64,000 bases of DNA, from positions 51,130,494 to 51,194,493 of the forward strand of contig NC_053045.1 of the NCBI RefSeq assembly GCF_003473485.1. Direction: 5' to 3'. This document shows positions 11,068 through 41,520 of the stretch, one piece after another (the stretch's first letter is position 1; the number at the start of each line of letters is the position of its first letter). Made by a program: the position numbers and the translations under genes. A model generated the notes under the pieces. That model made no database searches, was not told where the DNA came from, and saw only the letters and a list, made by a program, of their open reading frames with translations. The DNA comes from Medicago truncatula. Taxonomy: Eukaryota; Streptophyta; Magnoliopsida; Fabales; Fabaceae.

Positions 11068-12814
11068 CATGCAGGAGTAAATTGGTCTTACACCATACAC
11101 GAGTTAATTTTCCATCGTTGAATCAATAAATCTCTTATAAACTTGGCCTTCAAAATAATTTTGAACTTCATATATATAACACGATATCTCAAATCATGTA
11201 CATACGATAATTTCTTGACCATATATACAGTGGCCTAGATTGCTAACACTATTGTTATCATATCATATGCATACATTATTTTGAAGCACTAAAGTCATAT
11301 TCAAAAGATGTATTAGATCAGCTCCAAATTTTGAATGTAACGTCAAATTCCATAACCATAAGCCAACCTTGACTAAAATATGCCTCCAATTACATGTATT
11401 GAGCATCATAAGATATCACTAATCTAAAAGTACTAAAATCATAAATATTCAATGAGGTGATTATCACCTCACCAGAATTTTAATGCAATATCAAAATCCA
11501 GAATCACATCACAAGCCTAATCTTGATCAAATAAATATCTTGAACATGATATGCTAGAAAAGATCACAAAGCTATTCCAAACCATCTATCTAATTCTCAA
11601 AAAAATAAAAAATCTTTCATTTATAAAAAAGAAACATGAAGAGCACAAACTTTGCCACTCTTTTCTTTGGATGCTTTTGACCAAACCTCACATGAAGCTT
11701 TATCCACAAATAGGAATGGTTTTGACAAAAGGGCGTTTGTAAAACTAAATAAGAAGATAAGTTGGATTTGCTTAGAGTGGATTTGGGTGGTTCTTGTTGG
11801 CAATGAAAGTGCAGGGTAGTTAGTGACCACTAGTGGTACATACAGACTCACATAGTCAGTGACATGGTTATTATGCAAAACTTTGATTTTTGCTTTGAGC
11901 TCTATGAATTGTGGAAGAAAAATGGTGAGTGACTCCACAATATACAAATCAGAATATGGAGGAAAAAGTATAAATAAAAATGTCCCGCATCGGAAGCTAT
12001 GAGTAGAGCAGAGAGGAGCTTTGGTTATAAATAAAAAAAGGCTGTAGCTCTTAACTCTAACTCTCAGTCCAATATGATTAATGTTTCAATGGACTAAGCT
12101 GCAAGCAGTTTTGCACCGTCTAATCCTTCTGATCGGATGGATTAGTTTTTGTGCGCATTGATGAATTTGTTATCGTTCGCAATTTTGTGTCGTTCCATTT
12201 TAATTATATAAAAATGGAACGTAACAAATTACGACCATTGACAAATCCATCTTAAAAATAATGTAATAATTTTCACTTTTATATGCTATTATTTGCCCAC
12301 ATTTTGTATGTTTTGCAAAAGGTGGTGTGAGAATAAAAATATACATGTGGCATGTCCGTATAAATTGTGCATATGGATTAATTAATTTTACAACAAAAAA
12401 TAATCTAAAACAAGAAGTTTTAAGATATTGTAGTCAAATTTAATGTCTTTAACCTCTAATTGATGAATATTAGTTGAATTGTGAATTTTTCATTGAGGTA
12501 TAGTAGAATACTGAATCAAGCTTGTCAATTACTATAATTCAATCTTCGCTTTTGATGGTTGGAGTTTGAACCCTAAACATTACATATATTATATATTTTT
12601 TCTACCAATTGAGCTAAGTTCACGATGACCAAGGTGTATGCTTTATGACCACTCTTAAAATATTCAAATTTATCAAGGATGGAGTGTTTTTTTTTCGGGT
12701 AATTACTTGTTTACCTTGGGTAATTTTATCTGATGGAGTTTTGTTTGTACGATTTTAAGGCAATTATGTGTGTTTTTTTTCTTGGAGATAATGCACGTGT
12801 ATCTATCTCTTTAT

Positions 12815-17200: not shown

Positions 17201-18408
17201 ATATGATAAACTTGGCCTTCAAAATAATTTTGAACTTCATATATATAACATAATATCTCAAATAATGTACATACAATAATTTCTTGACCATACAGAGGCC
17301 TAGATTGCTAACACTACTGTTATCATATGCATACATTATTTTGAAGTACTAAAGTCATATGCAAAAGATGTATTAGATCAGCTCCAAATTTTTAATGTAA
17401 CATCAAATTCCATAACCATAAGCCAACCTTGACTAAAATATGCCTCCAATTACCTGTATTGAGCATGATACGATATCACTCATCTGAATTCTGAAGGTAC
17501 TAAAATCTTACATATTCAATGAGGTGATTCATCACCAGAATTTTAATGCAATGTCAAAATCCAGAATCGCATCACAAGCCCAATTTTGACCAAATAAATA
17601 CCTTGAACATGATATGCTAGAGATGACCTCTAGTGATGGTACACATAGTCAGTGACATGGTTATTATTATGCTAAACTTTGATTTTTGTTTTGAGCTCTA
17701 TGAATTGAATTGTTGAGTTGTGGAAGAAAAAGGGTGAGTGAGAGCAATGCTTATGTTCCTTTCCTTTGTGCATAGTTAACAGTAACACAGGTTGATGCTG
17801 AATTGGGGCCTCCAAAGGACATGATGATGACCCAAGAAATGTCTTTTGGACCTGCATCAGTAAACGATATTCTCTTCCTAAGCATTTAGAAAGGGCTTGG
17901 TTAACTTGCATTTGTTAGTTACTAAGATTTTTCGGCGGATTTGAGTTAAGAGTTAAGGAGTTTGAGGTCTAGAATAAACAACGAGAATAAACTAATATAA
18001 CAATTAACATAATAACATTGTAATTAAAAAAAACTTACTAATGTTTTTTCTATCTATCATATCATTTATTTAACATAGAAACAAACGTTATTAGAAAAAC
18101 AAAAGTGAAAGATTTAGAGAAACAAAAATGCAAATATAAACAATGCAACTTTACCAGTGAACGAATTTGCCCACATTTTGTGTATTTTGCAAAAGGTGGT
18201 GTGAGAATCAAAATATACACGTGTCCATATAAATTGTGCATATATTAGATTAAGTAATTTTACAAAAAAAAAAAAAAAAAAAAGTCTAAAACAAGTTATT
18301 GTTGTCATATCTTTAACCCCCCTAATTAATGAATATTACTTGAATTCTGAATTTTTTTTATTGAGGTAATAGAATTCTGAATCAAGCTTGCCAATTACTA
18401 CAATTCAA

Positions 18409-28235: not shown

Positions 28236-29150
28236 TATTGTTGTTGTGTTTGGTTTCAGAATTGATCCACTAACTTAATTGAATTAGGGTTCTGATGATT
28301 CGAATGATTTTCAGGTGGCGACTAGACAGACCGGTAAATAGGTCCCACATACAAATAAATAGATCATTTTTACCATGAATATTTAAAGAAAAAAGCCATT
28401 TATTCTGTCAAATTTTATTAGCGAGGGACCAAATTTAATAATAAATATAAAGATTAAATTGATAAAAAGTCGTTAAATATTAAAATTAAATCGATGGTAA
28501 ATGGCTGAAATATAGAGATCAACTTAATAATTTAATAGTGTTATTGACATTTTTGAAATGTTTATAATCGCATAAAAATATTTGAGAACGTTCTACAAAA
28601 TTAAAGACTAATTTAATAGTTTATTTGATTTATATTTATTTTCTTTGACGAAAAATAATATCTTGTTAACTCTTTAAAATTGTAAAATCAATCATCTTTA
28701 AAATAAAATCCAAGGAAATATAGTTTAGTTTTTTTTCTAGCAAATGTCTATAATTTACTTATGACGTTAATATTATTTCAAATAATTCTCAAATTTGTTA
28801 TCAGATTTTATCAAACAGATAGGTTTTATAATATTGTAAAGATAGATAACATTTGATGTAGTTGTTATAAACTTCAAATTTTATAATATTTCTTTTGTAT
28901 ATGTTGCATTTGATCTGCTAAAAAAATGAAAGATAAGACATAACAATTTTAGTTGTACAGTGTTTGATTTGTAAAATTGTTTTTGAAATATGACAAACTG
29001 AAGGCAAGGGACAAGACAAAAACATAATTTTTTGTGTCTCACTAAACCACGACACAAGTTTTTGTCCCAAATGCAAGTTATCTAAATACAAAAATAACTT
29101 ATTGTCCACTAAATATCGTATAAGACAAAAAATTATTCAATACCATAAAA
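28236..29150. other. Upstream flank of ATG16 and AT-rich spacer
   Basis: The ATG16 5' leader and promoter must lie in the first few hundred bases; no certain TATA box was seen. The rest is AT-rich, with a phrase AGGGACCAAATTTAATAATA of a common plant repeat type. No gene was recognised. Confidence 0.45.
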
Positions 29151-29157
29151 GTTTATC

Positions 29158-29530
29158 ATGTGTTGCTCTTCCTTGTATTGTGTTGTTCTGTCCATTATAT
29201 ATTGTTTAACAAATCAAACGGAGGATATTGATCATCTCTTTCTCTCTTGCAAATTTTTCCGAATAATCTGGCTTGGTATCTCTAATTGGCTTGGTTTTAA
29301 TACGGTACACCCTGCTCATGTTGTAGAACACTTTCATCAATTTGAATATTTAGGTGGGTTCTCAAAAAACATTCGCGCTACTTTTCAACTCATTTAGTTA
29401 ATAACTGTATGGGTGATTTGGTGCGAAAATGCGGTCTTTCGTGAAAAAGAGGTTCGCTACAATATCTTCCAGACAAAATTAAGCTATAATCTTATTGGTG
29501 GTTGAAAGCAAATAAAATTAATTTTGTTTT
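29158..29530 (+). mobile_element. LINE remnant, reverse-transcriptase zinc-binding region
   Basis: Plus-strand translation gives EDIDHLFLSCKFFRIIWLGI, the conserved C-terminal zinc-binding segment of plant non-LTR reverse transcriptases, followed after a stop by a VWVIWCENAVF and NIFQTKLSYNLIGG-like segment. Stops break it. It is a dead fragment. Confidence 0.75.
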
Positions 29531-30110
29531 TAACAATATGTGGTCGTAAACTGTGACAGAGCTCTGCTTAATCAGCTCCTTGATGTCTTGAATCAAAACA
29601 TCATAAACATAGAATTTGAAGAAGGGACCTTTAACGAGGTTAATGCAGTGAAGAGAAACAGGGTAGCAAACTAGATTGGTGATTTCCAAATCTTTGGCTA
29701 GCAAGAGTCCCTTGTAGATTAAAAACTGGAGTTCCTATTTCTCCATGCCCACCAAAGCGTGGCAGCGAACAAGAAATAAGAGTTGGTGCCCGTGCATCCA
29801 ACCTTAAGCCAATCATGCACAACAATGTTAGAGAAGAAGTTTTGGTCGTCAAAACTGAAGTGGTGCCATATGCTTAGAGAAAGATTACAATCACACAATG
29901 AAAAAAAGTCTCCTCCTCTAAGCCACATCTATAACAAATAGTTGCCTGAGCAAAATACTATGATTAAGCAGGGATAGCGTAGGTACAGACAACCAATTAA
30001 GAAATTTAATTTTCTTCGGAAGCTATAATTTTCAAATCCAAGACCAAAAACGAGAAGGGTTATAAGCGATGGCCAAGAAATACGTTATTTCAAACACATA
30101 AATAGTTATT
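29490..30110 (-). mobile_element. Second LINE remnant, opposite strand
   Basis: Minus-strand translation shows a degraded zinc-binding region (RRKLNFLIGCLYLRYPCL, then SLSIWHHFSFDDQ and FAATLWWAWRNRNSSF) followed by a frameshifted RNase H-like start. Several stops and frame changes are present. It lies tail to tail with the plus-strand LINE remnant. Confidence 0.68.
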
Positions 30111-30144
30111 TGTATTTGGCATTAATTTTTTTAGAATGTGCTTC

Positions 30145-30308
30145 TGCGTAACTTTAAGGTTTCTCGAATGTGCAATTTTCACCAATTTTTTTTTTAACAA
30201 AAACTTTTACTTAGGCCATGTTTTGATAAACATCTTAATTATGTATTTGTAGTGTAATATAAGTGTAGTATGTATTAGCTTCTTCTGTTTTTTTTTTTAC
30301 TAACTTTA
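30145..30308 (+). repeat. Left copy (R1) of a 163-bp direct repeat bracketing the Helitron block
   Basis: Nearly identical to 39382-39543. Both start TGCGTAACTTTAAGGTTTCT and end TTTTTACTAACTTTA, with about one substitution and a few single-base indels. R1 ends exactly where the Helitron 3' terminus begins. Confidence 0.92.
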
Positions 30309-30335
30309 CTAGATCGTCCATCTGTGCTACCGCAC
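30309..30335 (-). other. Helitron 3' terminus with hairpin
   Basis: The reverse complement reads GTGCGGTAGCAC, then AGATGGACGATCTAG. It is a 4-bp stem with a 4-base loop followed by the terminal CTAG, matching the CTRR rule for rolling-circle Helitrons. The stem is shorter than in many families. Confidence 0.8.
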
Positions 30336-30359
30336 TAGTCATAAAATGTTAAAACATAT

Positions 30360-31075
30360 GAAATTGTTCATAAAATATCTATAATTTATGTGGTAAGGAA
30401 CGTTGGACGCCTATAATATAATAGAATGGTTATATAATTTATGGAGTCTGTTTAGAAGTGTAATAGCATCAGCCAAAAAACTACAATACACACATAAAAT
30501 TGATCAAATTGTCTGTCAATGTTGATGTAGATAAGTTTAATATGCCTCAAGAAGCTTAAATATTCATACAATTTTAGTTGAATAAAATAGGAAACTTCAA
30601 ATGTATCAGAAACTACTACACATTTCACATAATGATAAAAAGAGTTGATTCTATTGACCCAAAAAAGGTTCACTCCAGAAAAAGGAAAAAAGATGCAGTA
30701 GATAGTTGATGCTGCCAGCAAAAGTGCACCAGACAAATGAGAGGTTCGCTGTGCAACAACCTGAAACAAATAATTCGCGTTTGACATTCAAGATATATGT
30801 GCTAGTATAGCTTCAGACGCAAATAGTTCAACATAGGAAACTTGGTTAATCTATGTAAACATACCAGGTGGGATGACTTCATTTTCAAACCAGCAACAGA
30901 ATGTAGCTGCTATTAATGTATGGTAATAATGCAAAATGTAACCTGGAAAGTTGGATCAGATTCAGTACAAAAAAATCAGCTTAACTTTATGTTAGAGATA
31001 TTCAAAATCTGTATTATGTTGAATATGATATAAACACAAACCTGACAGTCCTCTAATGCTACTATTTGGGAATTG
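30360..31075 (-). other. Helitron 3' segment, possible captured exon fragments
   Basis: Between the truncated helicase end and the Helitron terminus lies about 700 bp with splice-like signals on the minus strand. There is an acceptor TTTGTTTCAG before GTTGTTGCACAGCG (about 30762) and a donor CACCTG-GTATGT (about 30865). A 111-codon frame begins near this acceptor with VVAQRTSHLSGALLLAA. I do not recognise the protein. Helitrons often carry host gene pieces, so capture is possible, but chance is not excluded. Confidence 0.3.
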
Positions 31076-31084
31076 TAAATACTG

Positions 31085-33972
31085 TCATTGGCTCTTGTTT
31101 ATAGTCATAGCGAACGAAACTGAAATTGGGAATTGCTTGTGTTGAAACTTGAATGGAATCCTTGTATCAGAAGGTGTCAATGACAATCTAGGCATGTATA
31201 CTATATCCCCAATATTACTTCCTGTAATAACCTTGGCCTCAAGCACGTATCTGCCCATCTTAGTAACTATCAAACGCGTTCCATTGCATAGGCCTGCCAT
31301 CGGGTCTAAATTCCTTAACAACATAATAGGGACTCCAACTTTCAACTTAATTTTATGATTTGGAATGCTAGATGCAGTTATTGTGTTTAAAAATTTAGGT
31401 GTGTGAATGTCATCGGGCCTAGTTGCTGATGAATTGGTTGAAAGTGGAGAATCACAACTCAGATAAGTTTTTTCCTCCCCAGGAATCAAAGACATAACAT
31501 ACTCATTAATTTCTTCAACAGTGGAATTTTTTGGAGTTAATATGGCTCTATCTTGGAAAAAAGATGGATCGTGCATTTCATCTAGAAGTGATGGATAAAT
31601 CTCATTAACAATAGCAGCGATATGATCACCTGAGCTTCGAATAAAAAGGTCCTCTGGAATTTCTATATTAATATCTTCATCATTGGCAACACCAACAGTA
31701 CCACCTCCGATACCCAACACCCATTCACTAAACTACTTTCTTTCGTTAATATCAGAACTTGAAGAACCATGTAAAAGGCGCATGTTATTTGACAATGTTA
31801 ATACCTCGCAGAACTGCCATAAATATGAAGAGTTGATGCTTGCATTTACAACCTCTTGTCTATTTGCTTTAGGCATGACTGGGAGTACTTGACGGAAATC
31901 GCCACCAAGTACCACAACCTTCCCTCCAAAAGGGATATATGTCCGGCCGTTATTATGGACACGAAGAATTTCTCTCAAACTACGGTCCAGCGCCTCAAAA
32001 TAGTGTTTATGCATCACAGGTGTTTCATCCTATATAATAAGTTTTGCCTTACAAACCAACTCAGCTAATGGGCTTTTTGGATGTATCCCACATGTTGATA
32101 TTTCATTGACAATTATAGGAATACCAAACCTTGAATGTGTCGTTCTTCCACCAGGTATAAGCAAGGCAGCGATTCCGCTAGACGCAACCGTTAATACGAT
32201 TTCCTTCCTAGAGCGTATTGCAGAAGACAATGCTCTCCAAATAAATGTCTTGCATGTCCCACCGTAACTGTAAAGAAAGAAAATATCAGGAAGGTTAGCA
32301 TCTACTCGGGAAATAATTTTGTCATACACACCTCTTTGTTCCGTCGTCATAGTAGACATTAGTTGATTATGTTCAATCTCCAGCATATTCTGGTTGTAGT
32401 TCATCTCATCATATATCAACCTGTTGCAGGACTCATGTATAAGGGATATGTCCGTCCGAGGCATGGTTGGGTAGTCTTCTTTCAAACTCTTTCCATGGCT
32501 GTGCAACAATCTTTCTATTTCAGCTAGTGTGTAACTTTTAAGTTGATCATCATCCAACACCAAATCTGGACGCAAAAATTAAAGAATAAGTAAAAAATAG
32601 AACGTGCATTTTGTTGAACAATTGTGTTTATTATATACAGCACAGTGGATCAAATGTATATGTATCAAAACATAAATTGCCAAAAAGTATGGTATCTTAC
32701 ACAGGATGAATAAACAAAAATATTGGCTAAATCTATATTGGCATTCATCAAACGTTATAATGCACTATAACATGATAAAAACAAACACAAACAAATTAGG
32801 AGTATTACAGAATGTTAATCTAATCATCAAAGCTAAAAATTGCTTGAAACATAACTACCTGGAACACGCATTGCCCTTCTCTGTCGATGTAGCATATCAT
32901 CACTCACATTCTGCCATGTCTTGTTCCAGACGACCTCTGGTTGAGAAAATTGGTTTGATACCAACAATTGGACAAATAAACTGCGCATGTAACTGACAGT
33001 TCCCCAAATAGAAGCTTGGTTAATTGCGTTTATAAACTCTTTATCATCATCTATTAAGTCTAATGCAAAACATGCATCCTTAAATGTGTTATACTTTTTT
33101 CCACTGACCGTGTAAATGTCATTATAGCAAGATGGACCCTTCACAAAGTTAAGTAAAAGTCGGAGATAAAAAATTTCGCCACTTCCTGGAGGGAAAAAAT
33201 GTATTCGTCCAACTGAAATTCCTGGAGGGACCATCTACGCTCTGAAGCCTTCCGAACAAATTTCATCGAAAACTCACCATAGGTCAAATCCTTGGCTTCA
33301 GTATACTTTATGTTTGCCTCAAACCATGCCAAGAATTTAGTGTCACGAATATGGGGTTTCTGTATGACATCTTCAAGATTTTCATGGTCTTCGAAAACAA
33401 CAGGCTCTTCGCCTTCAAGATGGAAACTAAGGCGCTCAACGGAAGGCTCTCTATAATTAATATGAAATGACCCTTGTTTACGTACTTAAACAAATATTTA
33501 ATTGACCTAGACTGATTGCACCATTCAACATTTATGTGGGCATTATACTTCAGGAGTAAAAGACGGTTATAAGGCACTACATATCTGTTGTCAACAAATG
33601 ACTCCCCATTTTGGATAAAATCACCGTTGTTTCTCCTTCGGTAAACTGGGTAACCATCAGAATCAATAACGGTACTGAATGTATTTTTTTGGAAAATGTT
33701 TGGTGCATTTTTTATTAAGCATGCATGGTGATTTAGTGTTTTGTGGACCGCAAGGACCATGTATCATGAGGGATGCAACAATGTCGTACAACCTTGGGTC
33801 ACGATTTTTGTATGGAATTTCTGCAGATATAATCTTGTCGATCTGATTAGGATGCTTGCATCGGGACTCAGGTCGCAAGAAAACTAATATGTGAGCATGT
33901 GGTAGGCCGCGCTTCTGAAACTCAATGGTATATATTACTGCACATAAATATGCCTAGTAAGTGAACAAACAT

Positions 33973-34005
<33 letters not shown>

Positions 34006-36561
34006 ACTAAATTTAATAATAATTCACAAAAAATAAGCACAATATATCTGCTTTAACCTTCCCAAAAATCTTCCCCTTTTTAATATACTTTATGAGATGA
34101 TCCAACTTTATTTTGAAAAGACAACTGACCAAATTAGGTCGATCTTCCAGTTTAAGATTATGTTTCTTAAGAAAGTCAACTAACTCTGGCCATTTATGGT
34201 TGCACGTAAAAGTGATGAACAAATCAGGGTAACCAACCTAACCACATATTGCCATGGCATCTTGATAATTATGTATCATGTAACGTGCCACCCCGAACAA
34301 TTTTGACGGCAATACCACTCGCTTTCCTGCACTGGCTGGACTGGTCTCACCTCTAAGAACAGCTTCTGTGAGTCTCTTGTACAAATCAGCTCTCACCTCT
34401 TTTTGATGATTTCGATACCACATCAATCGCCATGAATCTATCATTCTGAATGCATCGACTAAAAATTGTTGGAACAAACGCCTGACATATAATAAATGTG
34501 ATTGGTATATATCTCTGTGTTGAATCTTGTAAGCAAACCACTCTTTCATCGAAACAAATACTCACTTAATAGGTTTCGTTTTAGGTTTGTCTGTAAACCT
34601 GATGCCTCTTCGAAACCCATCTTATCCTCTTGAAAAAATTAAAGGGTATTGCAATGGCAAATAAGACATTTAAAAAACATAAATACGCTTATGAAGACCT
34701 GACCTCTCCTCAACAACTACATCCCTTTCGAAATCTGCGGCGTCATAATCACCTACGACCAATGCTGCAACTTCTGAAGCTGTAGGCAAGTTGTAACGCC
34801 TACCATCATAACCCCTCTTTCCCAGAATTCATAATTTAATTTGAGGAGCATTGTCTTCTAATAATGTGTCCCTGACCATCCTATATGACTTTACAAACGA
34901 ATTCGAGTTGTATAAGATATGTCGTAGCTCTTTGATGATAGTTTTCTTAATCGATTTCTTGTCATCTTCCATTCTGCACATTCAATTACACAATATTAAA
35001 TACATCATAGCCAATATACGTTAAGGTACATCATTGTGGAACCTGCTGCACAATTTAGTAATGACATAACTATATATAATATGATATGTACCTGACTGAT
35101 AGCATACAGTTGGAAAGCTCGTTGTCCGTATCATAGATATACAACTGAGTGAACCTCGGATGATCACCATGTTTGGGCAGTAGGCTCCCGATTTGGTGGT
35201 AATTCTCTCCATTCAAAACGAAAACAGGTGGTGCATTACCATTGTTGTTGGTGCTGTCAATATTGGCTCCCATAGATGTAAAAGCGAACATGCTATTGAA
35301 CGACCTTATATTCTCCATAAATATTTTGCTTTTCTTGTCGTTATTGTGGTATAAATCGTACAATCTTCAAGGAAGACGTTTGAATGGTGCTATTTCTATT
35401 ATTCCTTGCATACAACACAATGAAAATTCTGGATTCGATGTATCAGTGTGTTTTGATACCCTTTCCTCGTACCACATAATTGCACCACACCATGGACAGA
35501 TAAAACGCAGCTCTCCAACGCTATAGTAATCTGCAAGTAAATCACAATATTTTCCAACATGCCTTTACATAACTGAAGCTTGATATTAGCATATTAGCTT
35601 GCTGCACGACATTGGTGTTTAGTCTTTTGGTTGATATTAAATTTCTGCTAACCTGTGTCATTTGCACCATCCGTCACATCTTCCTCTTCGTCATTATCTG
35701 TCAATAAGTCAAGTGCATAGAAAGTTAAATCATGTTCAATTCAACAAAGTCTTGGTCAGTAGTAATAATACGCAATGAAAAGTGATTATAATACGCATAC
35801 CTAACTCATGAAAGGGAACATCACCCCTTTCATTGTTCTGATAGCACTTTGTTTCGAAATCTTCATCCATGTTAGCACTTAATCCATTATCCACAGTTGC
35901 TGGTATATTGTCTTCTACGTCTGAAATTACATAATTGATATTCCTATCACAGTCTGGATATAACTGGTGCATATATTTTGTCACGAAATAAAATGTATTC
36001 ATAGTTTGATATAATTTTTAAATCTTATATATATTACCAGATGCATTCTCAGGTATCTCTGAAACTTCCCCATTCTCATTGCACTCCGTATCAAGGTCCA
36101 TCTCTTGAATGGAAACACGTCTATCACGAAGTTCTCCAACTTTTATTACACAAAAATAGATAGAAATAATTACAATTAGAAATCTGACTCGAAAACATAT
36201 AACTGTGAAAAATTACACACAATATGCAACCCACTGATGTTTTAGCTTACCTTGCGTATTATGAGGAACTTCATTCTCTTTCCCACGTTCAGAGACATAT
36301 TCCGTTGATACATTGTTTTCTTTTAGTTGTTCTGAATTTTCCTTACCATATAAACCACCTCCTTTATGTTTTAGAATGTGTTTCCCAGGTTTTGCAGGCA
36401 TGAGCTTCCGAAACGCAACACCACCTGAAATGTAATGTTAATCAGAGGATTCATGAAACTAAAAGAATTACAATTAATAATAGTTAGCAAGTGATACCGT
36501 TTGTTATGTCAGACAAAGGGTTATGCCCATTGTTAACCTTGTGCCTCTTGTTGGAGTTCAT
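31085..36561 (-). pseudogene. Broken Helitron Rep/PIF1-like helicase gene
   Basis: The start at 36561 (MNSNKRHKVNNGHNPLSDIT) is followed by several short N-terminal exons. Next come an SMFAFTSMG...LIGSLLP-like segment (about 35100-35360, here GSLLPKHG), the Helitron-like N domain (VRRLFQQFLVDAFRMID; PDLFITFTCNHKWPEL) and the HUH relaxase core (GLPHAHILVF) after an intron at about 33940-34010. The PIF1 helicase follows (EQRGVYDKII, GRTTHSRFGIP, VVLGGDFRQVLPV, MTINKSQ). It is dead: TAG replaces a normal tryptophan codon after MAICG and after CKAKLII, another stop follows DINERK, and there are frameshifts around 33240-33730. The Walker A loop reads GGTCKT where GGTGKT is expected. The frame stops right after MTINKSQ, so the last helicase motif is missing. 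Confidence 0.88.
33983..34004. repeat. (AT)11 microsatellite in a Helitron intron
   Basis: Uninterrupted AT dinucleotides between the Rep N-terminal exon and the HUH exon. Confidence 0.95.
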
Positions 36562-36637
36562 TTTGATGCAGTCAGATAGATGGGATAAGCACAATGGAAA
36601 TAAAGGAAACTTCAATGGTTTAGATCTAAACGAAAAC

Positions 36638-38668
36638 TGTAACGCCCTCTTTGAATTATTTAATTATTTAATTGAGTCTAGAATTTATTAAGATGAGTTT
36701 ATATTATATTTATATGATATGTGTGATTTAAGGTGATTTTATGAGGAGTTGTGACTTATTTTATTGTTTAGTAAAATAAGATTTGAAAATAAAATAAATA
36801 TTGAGTTGAGGGGTTGTTTTGAGATTTTAGAGAGTTTTGGGGGAGAAAGAGAAATAAGATAAAATAGATAGAGGATATATAAATAGGAGAGACCTAGTTT
36901 AGAAAAACAGTACGTACGATCAGTTTTTGGAAAAAAGGGAGAAAAAGCCAAGAGAAGAGAAAGAGACCAAAGAGCTGCGATTTTCATATTCTAAGGTAAG
37001 GGTGAGACTAGCATTCAATTCTATTATTCTATATAACTCATATGATTGTATTTAGCAAGTGTAGGATTGAATTAGAGAAGTTGGAAAATTAGGGTTAATA
37101 AGAGAAATTGAGGATTAATGGATGAAAAGTTGTTAGATTGATGTAGAATTTGTTTACAGATCTTAGATAAGTCATAATATGATTACATGAATCAATGTTA
37201 GGCTTAAAACCATGTGAATAGGTGAATTTTCGTGAAAACTGCACTTCTGCCTGAGCTTACATTCATCGTTCGCCTCGCGAGCAACTTTTACCCGCCTCGC
37301 GAGTTGCACCTTGCAGCTCGCCATAGCGAGCAGATTCACTCGCCTAGCGAGTGTGACCAGAGAGTCAGCATGATTTCGTAGTTTTGACCCTTAAGTTAAA
37401 CCTTAGATGTTTTTGAGTGCCTGAACATGTGTAATAATGATTAGGAAAGATTTTAGATTGAGATTGAACATGGAATAGTTTAAGAATTGATTTTTGGGAG
37501 TTACACCTGAACTCACCATAGCGAGTAGAGGCTTGTTAGGTTAAATGCGATCTTTGTCACACGAGTTGATGTGAGTTGCTAGAGGTAAAAAACTAAGTTG
37601 TTTATCTTGTTGTTGATGTTCCAGTAAGACTAATGCATATGAATTGATGTTGTTTATAATGTGATATAATTGTATATACATTACTTGAATTATATATGAA
37701 TATTTGAGATATTGATGACTTGCATTTGATATGGTTATATCATGAATTGTTTTGCATATTGTCTATGTTGCTGTTTGTTATTTAACTAAGCTGCATGAGT
37801 CGGTCTAAGTTGAAAGAAGATGTTCCAAATTATTGGATTTATATAAGAGGTTGTTTCTAAGAGGTTGAGTTGTTGTGTCCATGCATTAGCATTCATTGTT
37901 GGGGGCTTGATGCCCTGGAGCCTTTGCTCACCACGTTGGGGGCTTGATGCCCTGGAGCTTTAGCTCAATTAAGTTGAGGACTTGATGCCCTAGAAGTATA
38001 TTAATACTTATTACGTTGAGGGCTTGATGCCCTGGATTGGTACCACATGCATATATGAGGTCTAAGTTGCATAGTCGAGTTGAAGTCGCATTTGTCGAGT
38101 CAAAGTTGTTAAATTGTTAAGATGTTGAAGTTGTGATTCTTTATATGAACTATTAATGAAGTGATATATGATATATTATTATCTATGATGTTTTCATGTT
38201 GTTAAATATAATTGTTGAATTATACGTTTAATATTATTGTTTTGTGAAATCTCACCCTTTCTACTTGGAAATGTTGCTCTTCGTATGAGTAACTTGCAGG
38301 TGATCGAGAGTAGTTGTTGTTGCTTTGCTGTCGTGAGTGGTTATCCCTCATTGAGTCTTTTAGGTGCTCTGATACGTAACGGGATGAGATCTTTTGTGGC
38401 TATTTTCTATTCCTTACGTATTTGATTCATGATTAAGTTGTTCAACTGAATATTTATGAGATGTTTGATGAGACCTGTGTGCCAAGACTTATTTATGTTA
38501 ATGAATTTAATCCGTTGCAAAGTTTGAATTAATATATTGATAATTTTTGGAAGGATAATTAGTTAATTATCTCATTTATGATTTTAAGAAGTGTAGCATT
38601 CCATTTATGTATTGATTACTCTGATAATTGTTTATGAAATTTTTACGTTGAAAAAATGGGGTGTTACA
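36638..38668. mobile_element. Solo LTR (2,031 bp) with 5-bp target-site duplication, nested in the Helitron
   Basis: It starts TGTAACGCCC and ends GGGTGTTACA, imperfect inverted tips typical of plant Gypsy-type LTRs, and is bracketed by AAAAC at 36633-36637 and 38669-38673. There is no internal region, primer site or coding sequence, so it is the product of recombination between two LTRs. Read forward, it has a TATA-like ATATATAAATAGGAG at about 36875 and a likely leader after it. The U5 part holds hairpin-prone repeats described in the findings. It sits 77 bases 5' of the Helitron start codon. Confidence 0.9.
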
Positions 38669-39381
38669 AAAACGGTACGAGTTAGGCAGCTTAATATCTC
38701 AGGACGTGAGCAAACATACCTTTGCTACTCATTTAAAAAGTTAACTTAGTGTCTTCCAATGTGATAAAACTATATGGAAAGGTAAAGAGACAAATAGGTA
38801 CTGATGAAGACAACGATTGTTTTAATGTGAATTTCTACAATTAAATTTATTGCTCCACTAAATGCTCTATGTATCATGAGAAACTAAACAGACTCTTCAT
38901 CATAGTGGCTGCTCCATTAAGAAAATCACGTTTACACATGCCATCTAAAATCTGCCTTTTCATCTCCAATCAATTTTCAAAAAAAAGACTCACAAAAATT
39001 ATTGATTAGTTTAAATGTTGTATATATTCTTTATGTGTTGACAAAAATATCAATTAAAATATTAAGGCTTTGTTTCAATTATATATTTAAATTTCTTAAT
39101 TTCACACACACATACACACACAAAATATTAAGGCTAAAATATGGTCCCTGTAAATATGCTTCATTTTGGTTTTAGTTTCTGTAAAAAAAAATTGTTTTTG
39201 GTCCTGCAAATATGCCTCATTTTGGTTTTGATCTCTGACTCCACTTTTGTGATGATTTGCACATGTGACATATGATGACTGAACCCATTTATTAGAGAAA
39301 TAATCCCTGCAAAATCTTTAATTTTGAAAAAAGTCCTTGCAAAATATTTTGTTTTTGAAAAATGTTTAATGAGTTTACCTG

Positions 39382-39543
39382 TGCGTAACTTTAAGGTTTC
39401 TCAAATGTGCAATTTTCACCAATTTTTTTTTAACAAAAACTTTTACTTAGGCCATGTTTTGATAAACATCTTAATTATGTATTTGTAGTGTAATATAAGT
39501 GTATATGTATTAGCTTCTTCTGTTTTTTTTTTTACTAACTTTA
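39382..39543 (+). repeat. Right copy (R2) of the 163-bp direct repeat
   Basis: Matches 30145-30308. After its last base the sequence continues TGTATTTGCGC, so R2 keeps an intact A-T junction of the kind a Helitron uses as target, whereas R1 is cut there by the Helitron terminus. Confidence 0.92.
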
Positions 39544-40128
39544 TGTATTTGCGCTATGCATTTAACAGAAAATAAAATCAAACTGTGTATTAGCTTCATC
39601 TCATTAACACTTGATGCTAGTGCTTATACTAAAATAATCCCATTCAAACTGACTCTAATTTTATAAAATTGAAAATCGAATGTAACATAACAAATTAATA
39701 TTTTATTGTTAAAGAGCAAATAATCCATTGATCTAATATGTGCGCACATGATCATCAATGAAAAAGTATACACTTTTTTATAAGAAAAAACATACCTTTG
39801 ATAGCATAATTAAATATGCACAACCTTTGTGCTACATCCTATGAATACAAAATAATACTTCAAAGCGCAATTTCATTGGATTCAGTTTTGTCTAGCTCCT
39901 TTGTGCTACATTTTATTAATGACACATTTTCATTATGGGTTATAGTTCAACTAGTAAAAATATTAAAATTGTTAGGCTAAAAGTTGTGATCGAATTTCAA
40001 ATTCCAAATCCTCCTCTTATGAGTGATTTTCAATTGTTGTTGTCATTCGTCTATTTAATAAAAAAAATAATGATACTTTCCATTATAGGCTCGACCCTAC
40101 GACACAAATTTTTAATATGTTCAAAATA

Positions 40129-40308
40129 TATAATCCCTTCATTTTAAAATATAAGCAAAATTCACTTTTTAGGTTCATTCATTTAATGATGTATGTGATC
40201 CATATTTTTTAGTGATGTGTGGTTCATAATATGGACCACATACATTGTTAAATGAATGAACCTAAAAAGTAAATTTTGTTTATATTTTAAAGCGGAGGGA
40301 GGGAGTAT
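40129..40308. mobile_element. Stowaway-type MITE
   Basis: Left end TAATCCCTTCATTTTAAAAT and right end ATTTTAAAGCGGAGGGAGGG are inverted copies, with the CTCCCTCCG-type tip of Mariner/Stowaway MITEs. The near-palindromic interior holds GTTCATTCATTTAATGATGT and ATTGTTAAATGAATGAAC. It has no coding capacity. Confidence 0.8.
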
Positions 40309-40612
40309 TGATCTTACTTAATGCTCTTGATATATTCTCCATTTATTTAATGAATTTAAAAGGTGAATTGTCTCCAATAAGAAGGAAGAGAGATCCTTCC
40401 AAAAAAAAAAGGAAGGAAGGAAGGAGTATTCTCTCATTAATACTTAATGCTAGTGGTTAAACTAATATAAATATATAATCCCATTCAAACCGACTATAAA
40501 ATTATAGAATTCAAAATCGCATGCAACATACCATAACAAAATAATATTTAATCCGTAAGAGTAAACAACTTATTGATCTAATGTGTGTACATAATCCTTA
40601 ATTAAAAATAGG

Positions 40613-40727
40613 GTTAAATATATTTTTGGTCCCTATAAATATATCAACTTTTCATTTTAATCTTTCTAAAATTTTCCTTCAACTTTTAGGGACTTTTTTA
40701 TAAGGACCAAAAACATATTTAACCCTA
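40613..40727. mobile_element. Short MITE, GGGTTAAATAT ends
   Basis: The left end GGGTTAAATATATTTTTGGT and right end ACCAAAAACATATTTAACCC are inverted copies around an interior of about 75 bp. This is a very common legume repeat type. No coding capacity. Confidence 0.8.
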
Positions 40728-40739
40728 AAAAGTATACAC

Positions 40740-41520
40740 TTTTTTATAAGTAAAAAAAACATTTGATGGAATAATAAAATATGCATATATAACGTTTGTG
40801 CTACATCCTATGAACCCAAAATAATACTTCTAAGCACAATTTCGTTGGATTCAAGTTTCATCTAAAAAATGACGCTTTTCATCCTTGGCCTGACCCTACG
40901 GCACAGATTATAATAGGTTCAAAATATATATTGATCACCCTTGCTTAATGCTCTTGAGATCTCCATTTATATGTTTGTAGTATTCCAGGACCATACTATG
41001 ATATAGTTTATTCTTCTTTGGTGGGATTCTACTGTATCTTGCATCAAACTCGTGTTCCTTGCGTAGGAATCCTAATAATTGATGTCTAATGAAAGAAAAT
41101 GATTGTTATTATTATACATAATGCTATTATGTAGAATATCAGCGGTGCGACATGTTTTGGTTTACATGATTCATTAAAAAGTCTGACCTGCTTCACTTAT
41201 ATGTGTAATTTTTCAATAAATATTATTATTTTATCTACGTATAAAATAAAAAATTCAATCTGATCATATCAAATTAAATGTGGTTTAAATTGTTCTTAAA
41301 AAAATGTGGTTTAAATTGAAACAATTTTTTGAGTGATCCAATTCGCAGTTGTAAAAAATTATAGTAATACTAGGATTATGAAGTCATGATAAACCTAACA
41401 AGCTCGATGAACTTTTTTTTTGAGAGAACAAGCTCCATGAACTTATAACATATAATTTACTAAAAAAATCTTATTTACAACATAATAATGATGGATTATA
41501 TGTAAAACATAGGAAATAAT
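40740..41520. other. AT-rich intergenic DNA
   Basis: No gene was seen. Phrases around 40740-40900 (CATTTGATGGAATAAT, TGCTACATCCTATGAA) repeat those near 39780-39850, so a local duplication of about 150 bp with roughly 960 bp offset is likely. Confidence 0.45.

What the first reader, a model, noticed from the sequence alone, without database searches (positions are those of the whole stretch)
30145..39543. Helitron block bracketed by a 163-bp direct repeat whose left copy stops exactly at the Helitron terminus
Seen: R1 (30145-30308) and R2 (39382-39543) are about 97% identical. R1 ends in ACTAACTTTA directly before the Helitron terminal CTAG, while R2 ends in the same bases followed by TGTATT, an unused A-T target. 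Known: Helitrons insert between A and T without duplicating the target. A long direct repeat on both sides is therefore not the normal result. Possible explanations are (a) flank carried along by the rolling-circle machinery passing its terminator, followed by nearby reinsertion, (b) a tandem duplication with one copy split by the insertion, or (c) repair-mediated duplication during insertion. R2 could be the preserved empty site.
Basis: partly seen in the sequence, partly recalled or inferred. Interest (0 to 1): 0.7.

Follow-up and report, generated by a model that had tools for sequence, protein, structure and literature searches.

The report
Repair scar at a truncated Helitron
A plant jumping gene (Helitron) that lost its front end carries, at the broken end, a copy of the 162 bases that lie behind its rear end, most likely the scar of a broken chromosome patched with the uninterrupted version of the same site; it is tidy but follows known repair habits.

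Summary

That end (A|TC...) was found in relatives; the window copy is 5'-truncated and lacks about 4.6 kb by comparison with the C4 copy. R2 abuts the truncation point, separated by 20 bp that match neither side (filler-like), and the Helitron side breaks inside a palindromic high-copy repeat.

Best reading: a full Helitron sat at A|T of right flank - R - left flank; a break inside it was repaired by copying about 162 nt from an empty allele, then end joining with filler. This explains the coincidence at the terminus without unusual Helitron chemistry. A one-ended insertion with a 162-bp target duplication, or an older local duplication plus deletion, gives the same sequence and is not excluded. 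No other accession could be tested. Ordinary mechanism, instructive case.

The parts
30145..30308 (.). R1, repeat copy behind the Helitron 3' end; its first base in Helitron sense is the T of the A|T target
30309..30312 (-). Helitron 3' terminus CTAG, followed by T
   Evidence: the same terminus, then different flanks (by eye), in L010 (ATAG), L014, L049 and L051
30324..30335 (-). 3' hairpin GTGC-GGTA-GCAC, 11 nt before CTAG
30309..39361 (-). 5'-truncated Helitron with degenerate RepHel (Pif1-like helicase) and a nested insertion
   Evidence: Pfam PIF1 9.7e-39 and Pif1_2B_dom 8e-23; blocks at 94.8-97.4% to copies on C4 and C7 up to 36641, 80-81% over 38666-39350, of which 38669-39122 matches at 94%
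36638..38668 (.). LTR-like insertion TGTAAC...GTTACA inside the Helitron, 5-bp duplication AAAAC at 36633-36637 and 38669-38673; looks like a solo LTR (by eye)
   Evidence: sequence; absent from the C4 copies L012 and L013
39130..39361 (.). Larger part (equivalent to bases 1-241 of 389) of a palindromic high-copy dispersed repeat, cut at 39361; a diverged relative of it sits at the same place in the C4 Helitron copies
   Evidence: (38 dispersed-copy hits, each ending at window 39361)
39362..39381 (.). 20 bp that match neither the dispersed repeat, nor the C4 Helitron copies, nor R: filler-like
39382..39543 (.). R2, repeat copy contiguous with the right flank across the uncut A|T (39543|39544)

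Best explanation
In Helitron sense (minus strand) the locus reads: right flank - A|T - R2 - 20-bp filler - broken Helitron ... CTAG|T - R1 - left flank. Most likely a full-length Helitron (TC ... CTAG, about 4.6 kb longer at its 5' side) first inserted normally between A and T in right flank - A|T - R - left flank. Later a double-strand break arose inside the Helitron, in or near the palindromic repeat. The end on the 5' side was resected through the Helitron 5' part into the right flank, invaded the empty allele (homologue without the insertion, or a restored sister), copied across the uncut A|T and about 162 nt of R, was released, and was end-joined with 20 bp of filler to the remaining Helitron end. 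Shown: the repeat, the 3' terminus, the 5' truncation, the unmatched 20 bp, the near-uniqueness of R. Inferred: the order of events, the empty-allele template and the repair pathway (synthesis-dependent strand annealing followed by end joining).
For: R occurs as a whole only twice in the genome. The window Helitron lacks the 5' part: the C4 copies run on beyond the break to a TC terminus, which 9 of 9 loci looked at share, 8 of 9 after A (8 of the 40 listed matches fetched, plus the C4 copy). By the C4 copy about 4621 nt are missing; the window has no match to that part except the shared repeat and four weak ones at 64-73%, and no match to the 5'-end motifs. The 3' terminus is genuine: 5 copies reach CTAG (4) or ATAG (1), then T, then different flanks. 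The dispersed repeat is cut at 39361 (each of 38 dispersed-copy hits ends there; 40 of 1051 candidates scored), three aligned copies run on beyond, and 20 unmatched bp follow. Copying from an empty allele explains without coincidence why R2 starts exactly at the insertion point. Only 1 substitution separates R1 and R2 in 162 aligned bases, against 6.5 expected if they were as old as the split of this Helitron from its relatives (P 0.011; 57 window-specific changes in 2829 sites). Human repair duplications reach 619 bp, carry fillers of 1-68 nt, and may prefer templates on the homologous chromosome (PMC2671141: abstract, one section, two passages); filler DNA at deletion ends is documented in maize (PMC2686159, passages).
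Against: No empty or full-length allele could be examined. Nothing in the sequence separates this from a one-step insertion with a 162-bp duplication, or from an older duplication followed by a deletion. The 20-bp filler has no recognisable template within the window (no exact match of 10 nt or more), although fillers are often copied from near by (PMC2686159). The human duplications lie on average 1.2 kb and scarcely over 5 kb apart (PMC2671141); these copies are 9.2 kb apart, about 7.2 kb without the nested insertion. The age comparison is weak (one substitution), compares coding-derived with non-coding DNA, and the branch includes time before this insertion. The break is only roughly near a hairpin tip of the palindrome: 6 nt from it in one copy form, about 33 nt in two others. 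The length of the missing part rests on one tandem pair on C4.
Confidence: 0.55

Rival explanations
1. Older local duplication: R (with neighbouring sequence) was duplicated first, the Helitron inserted at A|T of one copy, and a later deletion removed everything from behind R2 to inside the Helitron 5' part, with filler at the joint.
For: Local duplications occur in this very window, e.g. 11261-11428 with 17321-17488 at 95% and an old duplication right of R2, 39599-39894 with 40432-40864. It also explains the exact start of R2 and the truncation.
Against: Needs three events instead of two; the left flank 29000-30144 has no match elsewhere in the window, and no longer duplicated unit around R is seen; R1 and R2 look younger than the Helitron's split from relatives, though not necessarily than its insertion.
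Confidence: 0.2
2. Insertion-time event: an incomplete, 5'-truncated Helitron was joined by its 3' end at A|T, while the other target strand was broken 162 bp away; filling in the staggered ends gave a 162-bp target duplication, as with LINEs.
For: Geometry is that of a target-site duplication with a 5'-truncated insert; another close copy, on C7, also looks 5'-truncated. Filling-in of staggered ends gives tandem duplications in mouse ES cells (PMC8355091, passages).
Against: The C7 copy has no flanking direct repeat, nor have three other copies, whose 5' ends were not located (0 of 4). In Helraiser, transposition starts at and requires the 5' end (PMC4778049, passages), so 5'-truncated insertions are not expected.
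Confidence: 0.17
3. The repair copied R from R1 on the same or a sister chromatid rather than from an empty allele.
For: Templates close to a break are often used (PMC2671141).
Against: The copied stretch would have to start, by luck, exactly at the base behind CTAG, next to an exactly preserved right flank.
Confidence: 0.05
4. One reading: flank carried along by rolling-circle read-through and reinserted close by.
For: Read-through of the 3' end happens in Helraiser, about 11.7% of events (PMC4778049, passages).
Against: Read-through puts the flank behind the 3' end of the new copy; here the extra R precedes a Helitron without 5' end, does not start with TC, and the 3' terminus is the canonical one.
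Confidence: 0.03

Closest known systems
Repair-mediated duplications by synthesis-dependent strand annealing with end joining (Pace et al. 2009, PMC2671141)
   Same: Direct duplicate of nearby DNA, 162 bp (range there up to 619 bp), filler-like 20 bp (there 1-68 nt), deletion at the acceptor site
   Different: Here the acceptor is inside a Helitron, the deletion is kilobases long (there 1-15 nt), the copies lie 9.2 kb apart, and the template was probably the allelic empty site
Filler-DNA deletions in maize (PMC2686159)
   Same: Deletion of several kb joined with a short filler
   Different: Filler untraced here, and a 162-bp copy of the insertion site is added
Plant Helitrons (TC ... hairpin ... 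CTRR, inserted between A and T; PMC4683698)
   Same: 3' terminus, hairpin, A|T target, RepHel
   Different: Window copy has no 5' end and is flanked by a long direct repeat; an RPA gene, frequent in plant Helitrons, was not confirmed in the relatives
Target-site duplication of 5'-truncated LINEs (recalled)
   Same: 5'-truncated insert between two copies of the target
   Different: Far longer duplication, no poly-A tail, other enzymology

Membership tests
Helitron | 3' end CTRR followed by T of the target | tested here: met
   CTAG at 30312-30309 then T; same boundary in 4 other copies, one of them with ATAG
Helitron | Hairpin about 10-12 bp before the 3' end | tested here: met
   GTGC/GCAC 11 nt before CTAG; longer stem in L014 (by eye)
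Helitron | RepHel protein | tested here: met
   PIF1 and Pif1_2B_dom in 2 of the 4 window ORFs scanned; Helitron_like_N 7.8e-43 in the C4 copy L013. The Rep part of the window copy itself was not scanned
Helitron | 5' end TC after A | tested here: not met
   Lost in this copy by truncation; present in the family: 9 of 9 loci TC, 8 of 9 after A
Helitron | No target-site duplication | tested here: inconclusive
   162-bp direct repeat present, but it joins a break, not the 5' terminus
Repair-mediated duplication | Near-identical copy of nearby unique DNA | tested here: met
   161 of 164 columns; 2 full copies in the genome
Repair-mediated duplication | Filler, deletion or microhomology at the joint | tested here: met
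   20 bp unmatched and about 4.6 kb of Helitron missing
Repair-mediated duplication | Ancestral locus without the duplicate | not testable with these tools
   No other accession or plant genome is held; R has no third full copy
Classical target-site duplication | Recurrent in other copies of the element | tested here: not met
   0 of 4 other copies examined show a flanking repeat of this kind; only one of the 4, L010, is known to be 5'-truncated

The most novel reading that the evidence does not exclude
Helitrons can insert one-endedly: the transposase joins only the 3' end (CTAG) at A|T, the 5' part is lost, and the host closes the other side 162 bp away, leaving a long target duplication. 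That would be a LINE-like outcome of a rolling-circle transposon.
Probability: 0.15. Interest if true: 0.6.

Novelty: new member of a known kind. Interest (0 to 1): 0.27.

Why it matters
It is a warning and a tool. A long direct repeat around a Helitron need not mean a new transposition mode: it can record a break repaired from the empty allele while the insertion was still heterozygous. Such scars, if counted genome-wide, would give repair tracts (start fixed at the insertion point, length readable) without any experiment, and would show one way in which Helitrons lose their 5' ends.

Tried and rejected
R as a common dispersed element: rejected, two full copies; only its centre is repeat-like. 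R as LTRs of a retroelement: rejected, no matching flanking duplication and Helitron sequence between (by eye). R2 at the Helitron 5' end: rejected. The stretch 39130-39361 as unrelated flank: rejected, the C4 copies carry a related repeat at the same place and continue to the TC end. Missing 5' part displaced elsewhere in the window: only four weak matches of 64-73% outside the shared repeat. An RPA gene in the 5' part of the C4 copy: I took one reading frame for RPA by eye; Pfam at E 0.001 and at E 1, and a search of solved structures, did not confirm it, so it is not used as evidence. Long repeats at other copies as a sign of a recurrent mode: L010 gave one inverted 36-nt match, L014 three matches of 62-75% far from the terminus, L048-L049 and L050-L051 none. 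A template for the 20-bp filler: none in the window; not searched genome-wide. Palindrome tip as the exact break point: only roughly fitting. In one search I counted 2 differences in 163 bases for R1/R2 (P 0.04); that included a boundary base, and one search gives 1 in 162 (P 0.011). Earlier notes give the nested insertion as 36636; the start by the sequence is 36638. A search of the own genome with the right flank (39504-39900) did not complete. Papers: of the seven answered literature searches, paired Helitron with target duplication, direct repeat, empty site or truncation terms, and with excision and annealing terms. They listed 20 of 25, 20 of 44, 15 of 29, 12 of 16 and 12 of 15 papers; in those titles and starts of abstracts I saw no report of a long direct repeat around a Helitron, which is no proof of absence. 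Schiml et al. 2016 is not held and is known to me only by its citation in PMC8355091.

Full report
Setting. The window lies at G000:C4:51130494-51194493 of a 430-Mb, 42-contig genome. Genes and repeats look like those of a legume; from the assembly size I take it to be Medicago truncatula (recalled, not tested).

Observation. R1 (30145-30308) and R2 (39382-39543) align in 164 columns with 161 identities, 1 mismatch and 2 one-base gaps. The longest exact non-simple repeat in the window is 81 nt, the length of their exact core; five order-2 Markov sequences gave 16-18 nt. R1 stops at CTAG, R2 goes on with TGTATT. In the own genome R has these 2 full copies and 3 partial hits; the partial hits fall in the centre of R, which resembles a dispersed repeat. 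The tool states that its counts of repeats are lower bounds.

The Helitron. On the minus strand the block codes for a degenerate RepHel: 2 of 4 window ORFs scanned carry Pif1-type domains, and the C4 relative carries Helitron_like_N (7.8e-43). The 3' terminus is real: the window copy, L010, L014, L049 and L051 reach CTAG (ATAG in L010), each followed by T and then by different sequence. A hairpin lies 11 nt before it. The close family is small: 4 matches at 96-100% to the helicase part, namely the window, two tandem copies on C4 near 11.7 Mb and one on C7; the next best are at 83% and below (50 matches listed, 40 of 51 candidates scored).

The 5' side. The C4 copies match the window through 39122 at 94%, carry a diverged relative of the repeat 39130-39361 at the same place, and then continue for about 4.6 kb. 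Their 5' end came from a search with C4:11699940-11700300: 34 of the 40 matches listed start at the same query base, 20 of these 34 in one tandem array. I fetched 8 of the 40; together with the C4 copy, 9 of 9 begin with TC, and 8 of 9 have A before it (L053 has T); the second tandem C4 unit lacks the first bases and was left out of the count. Part of the C4 stretch 5' of the break is conserved at 66-71% upstream of RepHel in the more distant relatives on C3 and C7, so it belongs to the family. One frame there that I took for RPA was not confirmed. Outside the shared repeat the window has only four weak matches of 64-73% to that part. The window copy is 5'-truncated.

The joint. Stretch 39130-39361 is the larger part of a 389-bp palindromic dispersed repeat. 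Of 1051 first-look candidates 40 were scored; each of the 38 dispersed copies among the matches ends at window base 39361, and three copies that I aligned run on beyond that point while the window does not. Then come 20 bp that match none of these, the C4 copies or R, then R2. So the order in Helitron sense is: right flank, A|T, R2, 20-bp filler, broken repeat and Helitron, CTAG|T, R1, left flank.

Reading. The exact coincidence of R with the Helitron terminus has a simple cause if R2 was copied from an allele without the insertion: there the right flank and R are contiguous across A|T, so a repair tract coming from the right flank must begin R exactly at that point. The tract ended after 162 nt and was joined, with filler, to a Helitron end that had lost about 4.6 kb. 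Duplications of this size with fillers, close to their source, are a known signature of synthesis-dependent annealing followed by end joining; in human DNA 824 were counted, and 51 of 68 inspected breakpoints had deletions, fillers or microhomology (PMC2671141: abstract, the breakpoint section and two passages). Their usual spacing is shorter than here. Maize deletions with fillers of 1-131 bp are described in PMC2686159 (passages).

Age. With L010 and the second C4 copy as comparison, 57 of 2829 sites changed on the window branch. If R1 and R2 were as old as that branch, 6.5 differences would be expected in 162 bases; 1 is seen (P 0.011). The duplication is thus probably younger than the split of this copy from its relatives. 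This agrees with an event at or after insertion but does not prove it.

Against and open. The same final sequence would follow from an insertion with a 162-bp target duplication, or from an older duplication plus a deletion. Against the former, 0 of 4 other copies examined have such repeats, although one of them (C7) looks 5'-truncated, as no further Helitron match was found in the fetched stretch beyond its break. Against the latter stand economy and the youth of the pair. No other accession could be examined.

Verdict. The decisive fact, the 5' truncation with filler at R2, turns it from a Helitron puzzle into a probable repair scar.

Noticed in passing
G000:C4:15065067-15085406 (sample L060): 20 of the 40 matches listed lie here, mostly at 969-bp spacing: a head-to-tail array whose units start with this Helitron family's 5' end; a 2.2-kb sample shows three unit starts.
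   Followed up: partly
L016, L013, L012 (G000:C4:11699960-11720975): Two tandem 10.5-kb units, 99.5% identical, of the related Helitron; the first breaks off inside the helicase and the second starts a few bases inside the 5' terminus, so not a simple rolling-circle head-to-tail joint.
   Followed up: partly
36638-38668: LTR-like insertion with 5-bp duplication AAAAC inside the Helitron, absent from the C4 copies.
   Followed up: partly
39599-40132 and 40432-40930: Old local duplication right of R2, interrupted by inverted-repeat stretches 40134-40300 and 40609-40727.
   Followed up: no
33467-33470: About 111 nt present in the C4 Helitron copies are missing here, within the coding part.
   Followed up: no
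11137-11563 and 17206-17626: Local duplication, pieces 92-95% identical at about 6-kb spacing.
   Followed up: no
L010:1-4454: The C7 copy also looks 5'-truncated but has no flanking direct repeat; its 3' end reads ATAG with a shortened hairpin.
   Followed up: partly
L016:7041-7514: Reading frame in the 5' part of the C4 Helitron with a sub-threshold B3-domain match (E 0.0061, below the Pfam cut-off): possibly a captured host gene piece.
   Followed up: no
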